5,504 nucleotides of DNA. It comes from a bacterium. GTDB lineage: Bacteria > 4484-113 > JALSIF01. A program made the translations under genes and the position numbers. Below, in pieces: positions 44 through 5,504 of the stretch; the stretch's first letter is position 1, and each line of letters starts with the position of its first letter. The stretch spans positions 1 through 5,504 of the forward strand of contig JALSIF010000039.1 of NCBI GenBank assembly GCA_026981635.1, given 5' to 3'. Below the pieces are notes generated by a model. That model saw only the letters and a list, made by a program, of their open reading frames with translations, searched no databases and was not told the DNA's origin.

Positions 44-2275
44 CTACCCCTCCCCTATCTCCACCACCCTAAACCTGCTGTAGTTGCGCTCATGGAGGAA
101 GAGGGCGTAGCCGGTCATGCCCCCGGTGGATTTTAGCAGCTCCAGGGCGGCGAAGGTGTGGCTCTCCTCGGCCTTGCCGCCCTGGCCAAAGTAGTTCTGC
201 TCAATCTCTCCCAGGTGCTTCCTTGCCTGCTCCAGGTCACCTACTTGGTGGGCGGGGAGGTGGTCAATGAGGTAGCTGGTGGTCCTTCCCAGGGGGCGAA
301 GCACCCCCACCGCGTCGGCAAACTCGGTGTCGCGGAAGAAGTTGGCGATGGCCTCCTCGCGGGCCTCCGCGGAGAGGCCGGCGGGGGGGCTGAAGATCTC
401 GTAGGTGCAAAGCACCACCACATCAAACTCCCGCGCCATGGACTTGAGCTGGCTCAGGGCCAGGTGGGTGTCTAGGCGGGAGCCCTCGGGGAGGCTGGCG
501 TTTAGGCCGCTTATGAACATGGGCAGGGTGTCAATGATGATGAGCGGGGTGGTCTTCTCCTCAAGCTCGGCCGCCACCGCCCTGAGGCGCTCGGTCTGCT
601 TTCTGAGGGCCTCAAAGTCGGTCGCCCAGGTCCCCTCCACCATGGCGATGGCCGAGTTGAACTCCTGGAACTTCTCGTAGGCCTGCTGGATCTGCTGGTT
701 GAACTGGTCGTCCTCCATGAGCAGGTCGGGCTCGGCCCGCGCCCGGTCAATGAGCTCGCTGGGCAGGGAGCCCACTGCGGCGAGGGACTTGAGGTATAGC
801 TCCTCAATCCCCCGCTGCATGGTGATAAAGAGGGAGACCGCCTGGCCGGTGCGGGCCGCCTCCAGCATCAGCCAGTTTACGAAGGTGCTCACCCCGGCAC
901 CGGGAAAGCCGCCGATGACGTAGACCTTGCCCGGGGTAAGCCCTCCCCCCAGCAGGCGGTTCAGGTCATTGCTGGGGGTGCGGATGAGGCGGCGCTCATG
1001 GCTGAAGAAGCGGCGCAGAAGCTCCGGAGCCAGGGCGTGGAGGTTTCTCAGGCTTACCTCCTCGCCCTCCTCCACCCGGTAGAAGAGCTGGGTGAGGCGG
1101 TCAAAGGTGATCACCCCGCCGGCCAGGCGGGCCTGGCCGCGGGCGTTCTGGTAGAGCTCCTCGGCCAGGGGGAGCTTCTGGGGGTAGGGGTCGCGGGGGG
1201 TGTACTTGCCGGGGCGCTTGGAAAGCTCATAGAGGGTGACGTAGTTGGTCCGCTTGAAGACCGATACGGGCAGGCGGATCTTGTGGGCCCCCTTGGGGGT
1301 AGAGAGGGCGGAGCCTAAGACCGGGGTGAGGGAGGTGGGGTCGTAGACCTGCCAGCTCAGCTGGCTCCACTGCTGGCGGAAGGCCTCCTCCTCCTCCGGC
1401 TCGTAGCCCAGAACTATCTCTGCCATTCGGCGAAATACCCGGTGGAGATCGGGCTGGGGCTCAATGCCGAAGACGGTAGCGTCCACCACCACCTCCAGCA
1501 GGCGGCCCGAGTAGTAGATGGAGATGGCGTCGGGGGGGATGTCGTAGCCCTTGTCCAGCCGGTCGATCACCTCCAGGGCCTGGTTGATGGCGTGGACCAT
1601 CTCGGAGGAGTTGTGGGCCTCAAAGACCACCTGGAAGTCGCCGTAGAGGTCAACCTGGCCCTCCTCAATGAGCTGGTCCAGGCGCTCCACCTCTTGGGTC
1701 AGGTAGGAGTAGCGGGACTGGTAGAGGTCGTTGTAGTTCTCTTTCAGGACTTCGGGAATCTCTTCGGGCCTGACCAGCACTCCGTGGGGGTGTTCCCGGT
1801 CGTGGTATTTCACCGGCACCCGGCGGCGGATGAGGCTGCCGTCCTCCTGGCGCTCAAACTCAAAGCGCACCAGGCGCAGGAAGCCGTAGCCGGGGGGCCG
1901 CTCCTGCTGGTCGTCCTCCAGGTCCACCCCCGCCTGCTCGGCCAGTTCCTGGATGGCCTCGTCCTCGCCAATCCCCTTGCCGGCGGCGTAGAGCTCGGCC
2001 AGGTTGGCAAAGATGAGCCGGCCGTGGTTGGGGGTGGTGTCGTCCTCCTTGAAGAAGACCCGCCCCGAGTCGCGCTCAATGAGCAGGAAGCCGTTTCCTC
2101 CCTCGCCCCCTCCGGCCAGCTCGGCCACCCGGGGGGGACAGGGGGCGAGGATCTCGTTGCCCTGCTCCCTTACCAGGGCCGGGTTTACCCCGATGGAGGT
2201 GAGCACCTTGATGGGGTCCAGCCGAGCAAAGAGCCTTTTCAGGCCTCCCTCGCTCTGATTTGTCTCGTGGACCAT
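44..2275 (-). CDS. Degenerate primase-helicase-like protein (CHC2-like, AEP-like and DnaB/RecA-like regions)
   Basis: This is an intact 743-residue protein with no signal peptide or membrane segment, so probably cytoplasmic. Residues ~12-118 resemble the DnaG CHC2 zinc-finger domain: Cys46-Pro, a basic/aromatic strand (RVFF, 72-75), then a helix ending AIQELAEQAGVDL (107-119). Only one cysteine of the usual metal set remains. Residues ~130-345 follow the AEP motif order: FEAHNS (218-223) where DxD is expected, IYYSG (253-257), and GSALSTPKG (321-329) where the SxHxKTG-type motif is expected. Residues ~430-743 resemble the DnaB C-terminal ATPase: GFPGAGVS (456-463) in the Walker A position, LIIID (578-582) as Walker B, and KSTGGMTG (715-722) in the arginine-finger hairpin position. 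The RecA-fold assignment is the firmest; CHC2 and AEP rest on by-eye motif order. Walker A Lys is Val462. The ATG at 2273-2275 lacks a close Shine-Dalgarno, but later in-frame starts would cut the CHC2-like region. Codon use matches argS, so recent transfer is not evident. It could act in replication or repair as a non-catalytic DNA-binding or scaffold protein (inference). Confidence 0.8.
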   Translation of the reverse strand: MVHETNQSEGGLKRLFARLDPIKVLTSIGVNPALVREQGNEILAPCPPRVAELAGGGEGGNGFLLIERDSGRVFFKEDDTTPNHGRLIFANLAELYAAGKGIGEDEAIQELAEQAGVDLEDDQQERPPGYGFLRLVRFEFERQEDGSLIRRRVPVKYHDREHPHGVLVRPEEIPEVLKENYNDLYQSRYSYLTQEVERLDQLIEEGQVDLYGDFQVVFEAHNSSEMVHAINQALEVIDRLDKGYDIPPDAISIYYSGRLLEVVVDATVFGIEPQPDLHRVFRRMAEIVLGYEPEEEEAFRQQWSQLSWQVYDPTSLTPVLGSALSTPKGAHKIRLPVSVFKRTNYVTLYELSKRPGKYTPRDPYPQKLPLAEELYQNARGQARLAGGVITFDRLTQLFYRVEEGEEVSLRNLHALAPELLRRFFSHERRLIRTPSNDLNRLLGGGLTPGKVYVIGGFPGAGVSTFVNWLMLEAARTGQAVSLFITMQRGIEELYLKSLAAVGSLPSELIDRARAEPDLLMEDDQFNQQIQQAYEKFQEFNSAIAMVEGTWATDFEALRKQTERLRAVAAELEEKTTPLIIIDTLPMFISGLNASLPEGSRLDTHLALSQLKSMAREFDVVVLCTYEIFSPPAGLSAEAREEAIANFFRDTEFADAVGVLRPLGRTTSYLIDHLPAHQVGDLEQARKHLGEIEQNYFGQGGKAEESHTFAALELLKSTGGMTGYALFLHERNYSRFRVVEIGEG

Positions 2276-2313
2276 AACCGGGTGAGATTCTTACCCGCCT
2301 GGGGGCTTTCCGG

Positions 2314-2342
2314 TTTATACGCCGCCTATCCTAACATAGCAC
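2314..2342 (-). promoter_or_regulatory. Candidate promoter of the minus-strand primase-helicase-like gene
   Basis: Read on the minus strand, TATAAA (2319 down to 2314) makes a good -10 box. The hexamer 17 bases upstream is GTGCTA (2342 down to 2337), which matches TTGACA at only three positions. Transcription would start near 2307 and leave about 32 bases before the ATG. This is the only AT-rich pocket between the two divergent genes. On the plus strand the same pocket offers TATCCT (2327-2332) or TAACAT (2332-2337) as weak -10 candidates for argS, without a convincing -35. The two promoters may overlap back to back. Support is by consensus match only. Confidence 0.35.
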
Positions 2343-2345
2343 CGC

Positions 2346-2358
2346 GGCCAACTTGGCC
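2346..2358. repeat. Perfect 13-bp palindrome in the argS leader
   Basis: GGCCAA and TTGGCC flank a single central C, giving a perfect inverted repeat. It lies 19 bases before the argS ATG and just beyond the promoter-like pocket shared with the divergent gene. A homodimeric regulator could bind such a site. A one-base loop is too tight for a useful RNA hairpin, so a DNA operator is the more natural reading. No particular regulator can be named, and chance occurrence in GC-rich DNA remains possible. Confidence 0.4.
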
Positions 2359-2366
2359 AGTGGGGG

Positions 2367-2371
2367 AAAGG
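2367..2371 (+). promoter_or_regulatory. Ribosome binding site of argS
   Basis: The purine stretch GGGGGAAAGG ends at 2371, six bases before the ATG at 2378, with AAAGG as its best Shine-Dalgarno match. It favours this ATG over the in-frame GTG at 2360, which has only pyrimidine/GC-mixed sequence before it and would add six residues not expected at the start of the family's N-terminal domain. Confidence 0.55.
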
Positions 2372-2377
2372 TACAGG

Positions 2378-4234
2378 ATGGGTCTGAGAGCAGGGCTTAG
2401 AGAGCGGGTGAGGGCGGTGCTCAGGGACCGCTATGGGATTCCCACAGAGGTGGAGCTTGAGCCCATTACCGAGCCGCGGCCGTGGGGATATTCCACCAAC
2501 GTGGCCCTGCGCATCGCTGGGCGGCTGGCGGAGGAGGAGATCGCCCGGCTGGACCCCAGCCTCTCCAAGAAGGAGCGCAAGAGGCGGGAGAAGGCGCTGG
2601 TGCGGGAGCATGCCCTGCGGGCGGCGGAGGAGCTGGCGGCGGAGCTTTCCCGGGAACTTCCTGCGGGAGTTGCCCGGGTGGAGGCGGAAAACGGTTTTGT
2701 CAACTTCTACCTGGACCCGGCGGTCTACGGACGGGAGCTGATCGGTCAGATACTGGCTGACCCGGCGGGGCTGGCGCGGGGCGAGCCGCGGCAGGAGAAG
2801 GTGATGGTGGAGTTCAGCCAGCCCAACACCCACAAGCCCTTCCATGTGGGACATCTCAGAAACACCCTGCTGGGCAACGCCCTTTCTAACCTGCTTGAGT
2901 TTGCCGGCTATCCGGTGGTCAGGGCCAACTACTACGGGGACATCGGGCTTCACGTGATCAAGTGCCTGTGGGGGCTGATGCACCTCGGGGAGCTGGGCAT
3001 AGAGCGGGAGGAGGGGGAGAGCGAGGGGCGCTTCCTGGGCCGGGTCTACTCGGCGGTGGACCGCCTGCTGGGGGAGGATGGGCCCGAGCGGGAGCGGGTG
3101 GAGCGGGAGATCCGCACCCTACACCAGCGCTGGGACCGGCGCGACCCTGAGGTGGTGGACCTGTGGGAGAAGACCCGCAGGGCCTCGCTGGAGGAGTTTC
3201 GCCGCATCTACCGCGACCTGGGGGTCTCCTTTGAGCTGGAGTTCTTTGAGTCGCAGGTGGAGGAGGCGGGCAAGGAGGCGGTGCGTGACCTTCTGGAGAA
3301 GGGGGTGGCGGAGGTCTCCCAGGACCCCGAATACCGGGGGGCGGTCTTTGTGGACCTGGCGGAAAAGACCGGCGACGAGACGCTGGGCAAGCTGGTCATC
3401 CTTCGGGCCGACGGGACCACCCTCTACTCCACCAAGGACCTGGCCCTGGCCCGGATCAAGTTTGAGCGCTACGGGATTGACCGCAGCCTCTACGTGGTGG
3501 CCAGCGAGCAGTCCCTCTACTTCCGCCAGATCTTTGCCATCCTGCGCCTGTGGGGATTCCCCCAGGCGGAGCGCTGCGTCCACATCCCCTACGAGCTGGT
3601 GGTGCTGCCGGAGGGGAAGATGAGCTCCCGGCGGGGGACGGTGGTGCTGTTTGACGAGCTGTGGGACCGGGCGGTGGAGCTCTATACCGCCATCACCCGC
3701 CGCAAGCGGGAGGAGCGGGGGGGCGAGGAGGAGGGGGAGGAGGAGAATGCCCGCCTCATCGCCCTGGGGGCGATCAAGTACTACATGCTGGCGGTGGACA
3801 AGATGAAGCAGGTGGTGTTTGACTTTGACGAGGCCCTCAGCCCCGACGGGAGAAGCGGGGTCTACCTGCAGTACAGCTACGTGAGGGCGCGCCGCATCCT
3901 GGAGAAGGCAGGGCTTGACCCGGACGGGGCGGGGGCGGAGCTGGTTCCCGGGGAGGAGGTTGAGCTTCAGCCTGCCGAGGTGGGGCTGATGAGACGCATG
4001 GACGGCTTTTCCTTCGTGGTGGAGCAGGCGCTGGAGCAGCTTGACCCCTCGCCCCTGGCCCACTGGGCCTACCAGCTTGCTCGCGACTTCACCGACTTCT
4101 ACACCGCCTGTCCGGTGATCCGGGCGGGGGAGCCCTCGCGCAGCTTCCGGCTGGCCCTGACCGCCGCCTTTGCCCGCCTGATGGAGACGGTCTCAACCCG
4201 CCTGCTCTCCATCGGGCTTCCCCGGGAGATGTAG
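2378..4234 (+). CDS. argS: Arginyl-tRNA synthetase (EC 6.1.1.19)
   Basis: Cytoplasmic class I aminoacyl-tRNA synthetase of 618 residues that charges tRNA-Arg with arginine using ATP. The N-terminal tRNA-recognition domain (~1-115) contains GYSTNVALRIAG (37-48) and NGFVNFYLD (105-113). The Rossmann catalytic domain follows, opening with the family pattern SQPNTHKPFHVGHLRN; the HIGH signature is HVGH at 156-159 and the KMSKS-type loop is KMSSR at 414-418. The C-terminal DALR anticodon-binding domain includes YLQYSY (496-501) and ends in the typical LLSIGLPREM. The protein is complete, at the upper side of the usual 550-600 residues. The extra length comes largely from a Lys/Arg/Glu-rich helix (~57-78) in the N-terminal domain and a Glu/Gly-rich stretch (~445-456) after the KMSSR loop. 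It is divergent from the minus-strand gene, and no clear terminator follows before the tRNA promoter. Confidence 0.97.
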   Translation: MGLRAGLRERVRAVLRDRYGIPTEVELEPITEPRPWGYSTNVALRIAGRLAEEEIARLDPSLSKKERKRREKALVREHALRAAEELAAELSRELPAGVARVEAENGFVNFYLDPAVYGRELIGQILADPAGLARGEPRQEKVMVEFSQPNTHKPFHVGHLRNTLLGNALSNLLEFAGYPVVRANYYGDIGLHVIKCLWGLMHLGELGIEREEGESEGRFLGRVYSAVDRLLGEDGPERERVEREIRTLHQRWDRRDPEVVDLWEKTRRASLEEFRRIYRDLGVSFELEFFESQVEEAGKEAVRDLLEKGVAEVSQDPEYRGAVFVDLAEKTGDETLGKLVILRADGTTLYSTKDLALARIKFERYGIDRSLYVVASEQSLYFRQIFAILRLWGFPQAERCVHIPYELVVLPEGKMSSRRGTVVLFDELWDRAVELYTAITRRKREERGGEEEGEEENARLIALGAIKYYMLAVDKMKQVVFDFDEALSPDGRSGVYLQYSYVRARRILEKAGLDPDGAGAELVPGEEVELQPAEVGLMRRMDGFSFVVEQALEQLDPSPLAHWAYQLARDFTDFYTACPVIRAGEPSRSFRLALTAAFARLMETVSTRLLSIGLPREM

Positions 4235-4319: not shown

Positions 4320-4393
4320 TGCGGGGTGGAGCGGTCTGGTAGCTCGCCGGGCTCATAACCCGGAGGTCGCGGGTTCAAATCCCGCCCCCGCAA
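4320..4393 (+). tRNA. Initiator tRNA-fMet (anticodon CAT)
   Basis: A full 74-base cloverleaf without CCA. The acceptor stem TGCGGGG (4320-4326) pairs with CCCCGCA (4386-4392), with discriminator A at 4393. The D stem is GAGC/GCTC, so it has the purine 11-pyrimidine 24 pair (A11:U24) typical of bacterial initiators. The anticodon arm CCGGG-CTCATAA-CCCGG places CAT at 4354-4356 and has the three consecutive G:C pairs that direct initiators to the ribosomal P site. The T arm is GCGGG-TTCAAAT-CCCGC. Two points are odd: position 1 is U facing A72, so a weak pair replaces the classical C1/A72 mismatch, and the 3' CCA is not encoded (A73 is followed by CTTT), so it must be added enzymatically. The three G:C pairs and A11:U24 argue against elongator Met or Ile2 tRNA. 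Confidence 0.96.
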
Positions 4394-4394
4394 C

Positions 4395-4508: not shown

Positions 4509-5504
4509 GTGAAGGGAAGAAGCGAGCCGGACGGTAGGAGAGGAGATAGGTCAGGCGACAGGGAGCGAGCGGTCCGGGGAAGGATCTCCCCCCTCAGGCT
4601 GGGCATCATCGCGGTGGCGGCCATCTTTGTGGCCGAGTTTGCCATCATGCACAACCTCGGCTGGCTGCTGGAGGAGGCGGGCCGCAAAAGCCATGTTCTG
4701 GAGTCTCTGCTGGACGCCCTGCTGGTCTCCCTCATTGCGGCGGGGGCCATCGGGGTTCTGCTGGTTAGGCCCCTGGAACGGGCCCTTGCCGCCTTGCGGA
4801 GGCTGTCTAGTCGGTTGCGCCATGAGCTTGAGATAAGCGAAGCCAAGTTTGTGGCGGTTTTCAAGCAGAGCTTTGAGTACATGGGGATTCTTGACCCGGA
4901 GGGCCGCTTTCTGGAAGTAAACGACATCGGGTTGGCGCTGGGGGGAGTGGAGCTGGAGGAGGTGAGGGGAAGGCACATCTGGGAGACCCTCTGGTGGGAG
5001 GGCATGGACGAGGAGCAGGAGAAGCTCAGGCAGGCGGTGGAGCGGGCCAGGGCTGGCGAGGTGGTCACCCAGGAGCTGCGGGTTATAGCCAGGGAAAGGA
5101 TTTGCTGGGTGGACTTTTCCCTCAAGCCCGTCTGGGGAGAGGAGGGGCAGGTTGAGTTCCTGCTCGCCGAGGGAAGGGACATCACCCAGCGCAAGCAAAC
5201 TGAGCAAAGGCTTCGCCTGCTGGCCCAGGCGGTTGAGTCAACCAGCGATGGGGTGATCATCACCGACCTGGAGGGGACCATTCTGGAAGTGAACCCTGCC
5301 TTCTCCCGCATCACCGGCTACTCGGCCGAGGAGGCGGTGGGCAAGAACCCGAGGATCCTCAAAAGCGGCAGGCAGCCGCCCGAGTTCTATCGCCAGATGT
5401 GGGATACCCTGCTTGCGGGCAAGACCTGGCAGGGCAAGGTAATAAACCGGCGCAAGGACGGCTCCCTCTACCACGCCAGCCTGACCATATCCCCCATCGT
5501 CAAC
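4509..5504 (+). CDS. Membrane-anchored PAS-PAS sensor protein, 5' part only
   Basis: An open frame of 332 codons runs off the right edge, so the protein is truncated by the window. The start is GTG at 4509-4511: the in-frame stop TAG at 4497-4499 lies just before it and no other in-frame start precedes the first membrane helix. GAGGG (4492-4496) is a Shine-Dalgarno-like match at a long 12-base spacing. Residues 1-31 are Arg-rich and probably cytoplasmic. Two membrane helices (~32-50 and ~67-86) enclose a loop of about 16 residues, so the protein is anchored but has almost no external sensing domain. PAS 1 spans ~114-225 (GILDPEGRFLEVND; ends RDITQRK, 223-229). PAS 2 begins at ~239 (SDGVIITDLEGTILEVNPAF, TGYSAEE, GKNPRILKSG, RRKDGS), a type often placed before GGDEF/EAL or histidine kinase modules. 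The output domain is unseen, so no gene name is justified. Confidence 0.9.
   Translation, partial: MKGRSEPDGRRGDRSGDRERAVRGRISPLRLGIIAVAAIFVAEFAIMHNLGWLLEEAGRKSHVLESLLDALLVSLIAAGAIGVLLVRPLERALAALRRLSSRLRHELEISEAKFVAVFKQSFEYMGILDPEGRFLEVNDIGLALGGVELEEVRGRHIWETLWWEGMDEEQEKLRQAVERARAGEVVTQELRVIARERICWVDFSLKPVWGEEGQVEFLLAEGRDITQRKQTEQRLRLLAQAVESTSDGVIITDLEGTILEVNPAFSRITGYSAEEAVGKNPRILKSGRQPPEFYRQMWDTLLAGKTWQGKVINRRKDGSLYHASLTISPIVN

What the first reader, a model, noticed from the sequence alone, without database searches (positions are those of the whole stretch)
44..2275. Primase-helicase layout in a single protein: CHC2-like, AEP-like and DnaB-like regions in order
Seen: three segments in the order zinc-finger-like (12-118), AEP-like motif series (215-345) and RecA/DnaB-like C-terminal domain (430-743). 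Known: CHC2 domains belong to DnaG-type primases and to some AEP proteins, and primase-helicase fusions occur in phages and plasmids, usually with a TOPRIM primase next to a DnaB-type helicase. Inference: a chromosomal AEP-DnaB-like fusion next to argS would be an uncommon arrangement and may be a lineage-specific replication or repair factor.
Basis: partly seen in the sequence, partly recalled or inferred. Interest (0 to 1): 0.75.

Follow-up and report, generated by a model that had tools for sequence, protein, structure and literature searches.

The report
Disabled primase-helicase fusion kept phylum-wide
A gene in a little-known group of uncultured bacteria makes one protein built like a DNA-copying primase joined to a helicase, but nearly all the residues that would do the chemistry have been replaced, and the disabled protein is kept by every genome of the group that could be checked.

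Summary
Structure search of the middle region returns only AEPs in the 50 rows listed; the C-region matches DnaB helicases at Z about 20. It is not an ordinary primase-helicase. Across nine orthologues AEP Asp-1, the motif II His and both motif III Arg are replaced; the Walker A Lys is Thr (Val here), the DnaB catalytic Glu is invariantly Gln and the coupling Gln invariantly Glu. DnaB proteins of the same genomes keep these residues. This member has also lost Zn ligands and the KxR arginine finger. The gene is in 10 of 10 genomes of its class (probably Candidatus Niteriota, GTDB 4484-113), with a tree topology identical to DnaB's and dN/dS 0.06-0.13. A homologous degenerate fusion occurs in a second bacterial family. 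Best reading: a domesticated mobile-element primase-helicase turned into a non-catalytic replication or fork-repair subunit. The function is inferred, not shown.

The parts
44..2275 (-). Gene of the CHC2-AEP-DnaB-CTD fusion, 743 aa
1901..2266 (-). CHC2-derived N-domain, residues 4-125; zinc ligands reduced to C46 (others are R49, F75, T80)
1112..1888 (-). AEP-fold domain, residues 130-388
1616..1639 (-). Former AEP motif I (residues 213-220, DFQVVFEA); DxD replaced by V217-F218-E219
1580..1609 (-). Most conserved stretch of the family, helix 223-232 (SSEMVHAINQ), 8 of 10 positions invariant
1481..1510 (-). Former AEP motif II (residues 256-265, SGRLLEVVVD); His replaced by E261
1310..1363 (-). 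Former AEP motif III (residues 305-322); Asp is S307 here, both Arg lost
53..1033 (-). DnaB C-terminal RecA-fold domain, residues 415-741
887..910 (-). Walker A without lysine (residues 456-463, GFPGAGVS)
815..817 (-). Q487 in place of the DnaB catalytic Glu
530..532 (-). Walker B D582, kept
398..400 (-). E626 in place of the DnaB coupling Gln
125..133 (-). Former arginine finger: KST (715-717) here, KNR in the eight other members
2276..2377 (.). Divergent intergenic region shared with argS; no sigma-70-like site found
2378..4234 (+). argS, divergent neighbour

Best explanation
The gene encodes a CHC2-AEP-DnaB-CTD fusion that descends from a mobile-element type primase-helicase and was fixed in the chromosome before the last common ancestor of its class. 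Its priming and ATP-hydrolysis sites have been dismantled while both folds were kept under purifying selection. Shown: domain identity, loss of catalytic residues, presence in every sampled genome of the class, vertical inheritance, purifying selection. Inferred: the mobile-element origin, and that it now works as a non-catalytic structural or regulatory subunit at replication forks or their repair. It would use the AEP fold (and the zinc domain where kept) to bind DNA or primer junctions, and its DnaB-like C-domain to dock onto a RecA-fold ring, most simply the cell's own DnaB, into which most members can still offer a KxR arginine finger in trans. The invariant Glu-to-Gln change is the one made in the laboratory in T7 gp4 (E343Q) and T4 gp41 (E227Q), so nucleotide binding without turnover is possible, although the missing P-loop lysine argues for weak binding. 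This member has also lost the finger and zinc ligands, so its role, if conserved, cannot depend on them.
For: AEP fold and DnaB fold. AEP Asp-1, His and both Arg lost in 9/9; Walker A Lys, catalytic Glu and coupling Gln lost in 9/9, while ten DnaB sequences of the same genomes keep K, E and Q. 10/10 genomes of the class. Tree topology identical to DnaB for eight genomes, similar mean identity 0.44 and 0.48. dN/dS 0.057 and 0.13. Conserved argS neighbourhood. Own DnaG in 10/10 and DnaB in 9/10 genomes, so it is not the replicative enzyme. Intact relatives sit on phages and plasmids, two of them beside a separate DnaB_C gene.
Against: No biochemical or interaction data. Motif III Asp is kept in 4 of 9 and motif I Asp-2 is Glu in 4 of 9, so the AEP site is not uniformly erased. 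P-loop glycines and Walker B Asp are kept. The window member lost the finger on which part of the docking idea rests. Motif register rests on profile alignment and predicted models, not on solved structures.
Confidence: 0.6

Rival explanations
1. Recombination mediator of the RAD51-paralogue or RadA kind: a non-hydrolysing RecA-fold protein that helps load or remodel RecA or DnaB at damaged forks, with the AEP and CHC2 parts as DNA-binding modules.
For: RadA and RAD51-paralogue chains are among the weaker sequence and structure matches. RadA/Sms reaches its cut-off in only 2 of 10 genomes of the class.
Against: DnaB chains score well above RadA (Z 20.9 against 16.0). The two genomes with clear RadA also have the fusion, so it is not a simple replacement.
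Confidence: 0.2
2. An active primase and/or helicase that uses unusual active-site residues, for example a new site built around the invariant helix 223-232 or a lysine-free P-loop.
For: Helix 223-232 and the E-loop QxGxEE are invariant, as is K332; Walker B Asp and P-loop glycines are kept.
Against: Metal ligands, His, both Arg, P-loop Lys, catalytic Glu and coupling Gln are replaced together; in PolpTN2 loss of both motif I Asp abolished activity (PMC5862659).
Confidence: 0.12
3. A gene of an integrated mobile element, still serving that element's replication.
For: AEPs in bacteria are nearly always on mobile elements (PMC5862659); intact relatives are on phages and plasmids.
Against: Present in 10/10 genomes, same tree as DnaB, housekeeping neighbours, no recognised mobile genes nearby, no viral-contig member found.
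Confidence: 0.03
4. In the window's own genome the gene is a decaying relic.
For: The window member is the most degenerate of the full-length ones: Zn ligands, finger and Walker A Thr are all changed.
Against: Full-length open frame with strong third-position GC signature, full-length profile match E 3.9e-175; low dN/dS in the two pairs that can be measured, none of which includes the window.
Confidence: 0.05

Closest known systems
AEP primases with PriCT-1 of phages and plasmids (Thermus phage P23-45 P23p40; Bacillus and Paenibacillus plasmid primases; PHROG 16345 and 18685)
   Same: Same AEP domain, profile-profile E 7.9e-15; in two plasmids the gene is followed by a separate DnaB_C gene
   Different: They keep D-x-D, SGxKGxH, D, R..R and K invariantly, are mobile-element borne, and are not fused to CHC2 or DnaB in those records
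DnaB replicative helicase, C-terminal domain
   Same: RecA-type domain with Z about 20; Walker B Asp and, in most members, the KxR finger kept
   Different: No DnaB N-domain match; P-loop Lys, catalytic Glu and coupling Gln replaced
Bifunctional primase-helicases (T7 gp4, Twinkle)
   Same: Order zinc domain, primase, DnaB-type helicase; T7 gp4 and Twinkle are among the C-domain matches
   Different: Their primase is TOPRIM-type (established knowledge); here it is AEP and inactive-looking
Unnamed degenerate AEP-RecA fusion of a second bacterial family (f122, L087, L089-L108)
   Same: Collinear over AEP and RecA parts, E 9e-26, AEP part alone E 4e-11; AEP motifs also degenerate; full length in 20 of 24 sampled genomes of that family; dN/dS 0.07 in one pair
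   Different: No CHC2 domain; Walker A Lys kept, Walker B Asp or Glu

Membership tests
Archaeo-eukaryotic primase (AEP) superfamily | AEP fold of the catalytic core | tested here: met
   All 50 listed PDB rows are AEPs, best Z 10.1; profile-profile E 7.9e-15
Archaeo-eukaryotic primase (AEP) superfamily | Catalytic motifs: DxD/DxE, His, Asp | tested here: not met
   Asp-1 and His lost in 9/9, motif III Asp in 5/9 including the window: member by fold, not an AEP enzyme by sequence
DnaB-family helicase | DnaB C-terminal RecA fold | tested here: met
   Pfam DnaB_C above cut-off; Z 20.9
DnaB-family helicase | Walker A GxxxxGK[ST], catalytic Glu, coupling Gln | tested here: not met
   V462/T, Q487, E626 in 9/9 against K, E, Q in DnaB of the same genomes
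DnaB-family helicase | hexameric ring | not testable with these tools
   needs biochemistry or electron microscopy
CHC2 / DnaG zinc ribbon (PF01807) | sequence relation to the family | tested here: met
   Orthologue L031 above Pfam cut-off; window matches orthologue profile E 1.4e-10
CHC2 / DnaG zinc ribbon (PF01807) | four zinc ligands | tested here: not met
   1 of 4 in the window protein; domain absent in L036; present in the seven other orthologues with an N-domain
Mobile-element AEPs (PrimPol-PV1 and similar) | encoded in a mobile element | tested here: not met
   10/10 genomes, same tree as DnaB, housekeeping neighbours
Non-catalytic replication subunit | physical association with the fork or with DnaB | not testable with these tools
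   needs pull-down, co-folding or biochemistry

The most novel reading that the evidence does not exclude
A whole bacterial phylum carries, as a fixed core gene, a catalytically dead primase-helicase that is an integral non-catalytic member of its replication machinery, for example mixing into or capping the DnaB ring as an ATPase-dead subunit that lends an arginine finger. It would be a bacterial parallel to the dead subunits of eukaryotic replisomes (such as Cdc45), built from domesticated mobile-element parts and kept in at least two lineages.
Probability: 0.25. Interest if true: 0.85.

Novelty: new variant of a known kind. Interest (0 to 1): 0.62.

Why it matters
AEPs in bacteria are described as almost exclusively mobile-element enzymes (PMC5862659). 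Here one is fused to a DnaB domain, fixed in the chromosome of every sampled genome of a phylum-level lineage, stripped of catalytic residues and still under selection. Such pseudo-enzymes usually mark a structural or regulatory job, so this points to an unknown component of DNA replication or repair in uncultured bacteria, with a clear testable prediction: it should bind DnaB and/or primed DNA without priming or hydrolysing ATP.

Tried and rejected
Viral contigs and phage records: no member found with the queries used. PADLOC defence models: no match, so no support for a defence role. The whole-protein fold search listed only DnaB-like and other RecA-fold rows because the C-domain fills the list; the AEP region was therefore folded and searched alone (then 85, 89, 90). 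Sequence search of PDB with the AEP profile found nothing real, so the AEP claim rests on predicted structure and profile-profile comparison. Other registers of motif I (F218/A220, A220/N222) were tried by hand; none gives a DxD. RadA replacement as a simple story was rejected. The DciA search was inconclusive, with weak hits in 3 of 10 genomes, so nothing is concluded on helicase loaders. The f122 profile over 385 genomes added, apart from f122 and the class itself, short matches confined to the RecA-like part of ORFs mostly of DnaB or RadA length, which are uninformative. Two literature searches for a described catalytically dead bacterial AEP-DnaB protein found nothing in the held library, which is incomplete.

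Full report
What was checked. The ORF at 44-2275 on the minus strand is intact, 743 aa. Its codon-position GC pattern equals that of the neighbouring argS, and its length is far outside chance. A profile of eight orthologues without the window protein matches it from residue 4 to 741, E 3.9e-175.

Domains, N-terminal. Residues 4-125 are CHC2-derived. Seven orthologues carry C-x2-[HC]...C-x4-C, one passes the Pfam cut-off, their profile hits Aquifex DnaG weakly (E 0.0013) and hits the window protein at E 1.4e-10, well clear of the best of 1000 shuffled copies at E 4.3. In the window protein three of the four ligands are gone (R49, F75, T80), and in L036 the whole domain is missing.

Domains, middle. 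For residues 130-388 an AlphaFold model made from seven sequences of the window and its relatives (pTM 0.65) matches only AEPs among the 50 rows listed: LigD polymerase domain Z 10.1, human Pri1 9.7, archaeal PriS 8.7, Prim-PolC 8.7. Foldseek on the same model ranks Prim-PolC first (E 0.004), and the full model gives a viral AE_Prim_S_like protein at E 2e-13. Profile-profile comparison with six catalytically intact AEPs from one bacterial genome, two phages and three plasmids gives E 7.9e-15.

Domains, C-terminal. Residues 415-741 are a DnaB C-terminal domain (Pfam above cut-off; G40P Z 20.9). The C-terminal part of the full model has low pLDDT in places.

Catalytic residues. The alignment was used for the AEP part, and an alignment with DnaB proteins of the same genomes for the C-part; tabulates nine members. 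AEP Asp-1: V,V,P,I,A,V,V,V,V. AEP Asp-2: E in four, otherwise V,Q,N,K,N. His: E,E,E,E,E,E,Q,S,E. Motif III Asp: S,N,D,N,N,K,D,D,D. Both Arg are lost in all; the Lys is kept in all. The motif I register is uncertain by one or two residues, but no register puts two acidic residues two apart in any member. Walker A Lys: V in the window, T in eight. Catalytic Glu: Q in all. Walker B Asp: kept in all. Coupling Gln: E in all. Arginine finger: KNR in eight, KST in the window. The ten DnaB sequences sampled keep K, E and Q. In PMC5862659, changing both motif I Asp of PolpTN2 abolished activity. That the Glu-to-Gln change is the one used in T7 gp4 (E343Q) and T4 gp41 (E227Q) rests on entry titles together with general knowledge of these motifs.

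Distribution. All ten genomes held for this class carry it; of 30 others in the first search none does, beyond ordinary DnaB or RadA-type matches. With the AEP profile, two of 375 other genomes respond. One, L086, is an intact AEP beside what looks by eye like a serine recombinase gene. The other, L087, is a homologous degenerate AEP-RecA fusion, full length in 20 of 24 sampled genomes of one bacterial family plus one fragment, collinear with the window family. In genome contigs only MAGs of this lineage give long matches.

History. The tree of the fusion has the same topology as the DnaB tree for the eight genomes compared, and a similar mean pairwise identity (0.44 and 0.48). dN/dS is 0.057 and 0.13 in two close pairs, against 0.152 for argS in the first of them; synonymous sites are near saturation in the first pair. 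Divergent argS pairing occurs in the window, G002, G003, G004 and G006, and argS lies nearby in G007. No mobile-element genes were recognised around the orthologues (partial annotation only).

Mechanism. Shown: folds, loss of catalytic residues, conservation, vertical descent. Inferred: loss of priming and hydrolysis. More speculative: a non-catalytic role at forks. The kept Walker B Asp, P-loop glycines and (in eight of nine) finger make sense if the C-domain still meets another RecA-fold subunit. Each genome has its own DnaG and nine of ten a recognisable DnaB (the window's MAG, 85% complete, shows none), so the fusion is unlikely to be the replicative enzyme. The strongly conserved helix 223-232, right after the former motif I, marks where to look for its new job.

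Novelty. Primase-helicase fusions and AEP-DnaB fusions are known kinds (PMC5862659 describes AEPs fused to DnaB-type helicases). A vertically inherited, class-wide, catalytically dead one is not described in what could be read (incomplete library). Hence: new variant of a known kind.

Noticed in passing
L087 1108-2991 and L089-L108: A second, related degenerate AEP-RecA fusion without CHC2 in 20 of 24 sampled genomes of one other bacterial family (unnamed, f122).
   Followed up: partly
L136 365-1450 and 1691-2075; L137 434-1552 and 1755-2159: In Paenibacillus and Bacillus plasmids an intact AEP-PriCT gene is followed by a separate DnaB_C gene, a possible ancestor arrangement of the fusion.
   Followed up: partly
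L036 9794-11839: One orthologue lacks the CHC2 domain entirely; a different ORF ends just upstream.
   Followed up: partly
L072 7999-9741; L073 13128-14882: About 580-aa protein with an ACS/CODH beta C-terminal domain (Pfam) directly downstream of argS, conserved in two families of the class, followed by a YbjN-like and a nitrilase-like gene.
   Followed up: partly
G000-G009: RadA/Sms reaches its cut-off in only 2 of 10 genomes of the class.
   Followed up: no
window 4509-5504: Start of a PAS-domain protein with a predicted N-terminal hydrophobic segment, cut by the contig end; tRNA-Met at 4320-4394.
   Followed up: no
L034, L032, L035 record titles: MAGs of this lineage are labelled UBP7 or Planctomycetales in public records, though size, GC and relatives fit GTDB phylum 4484-113.
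   Followed up: partly
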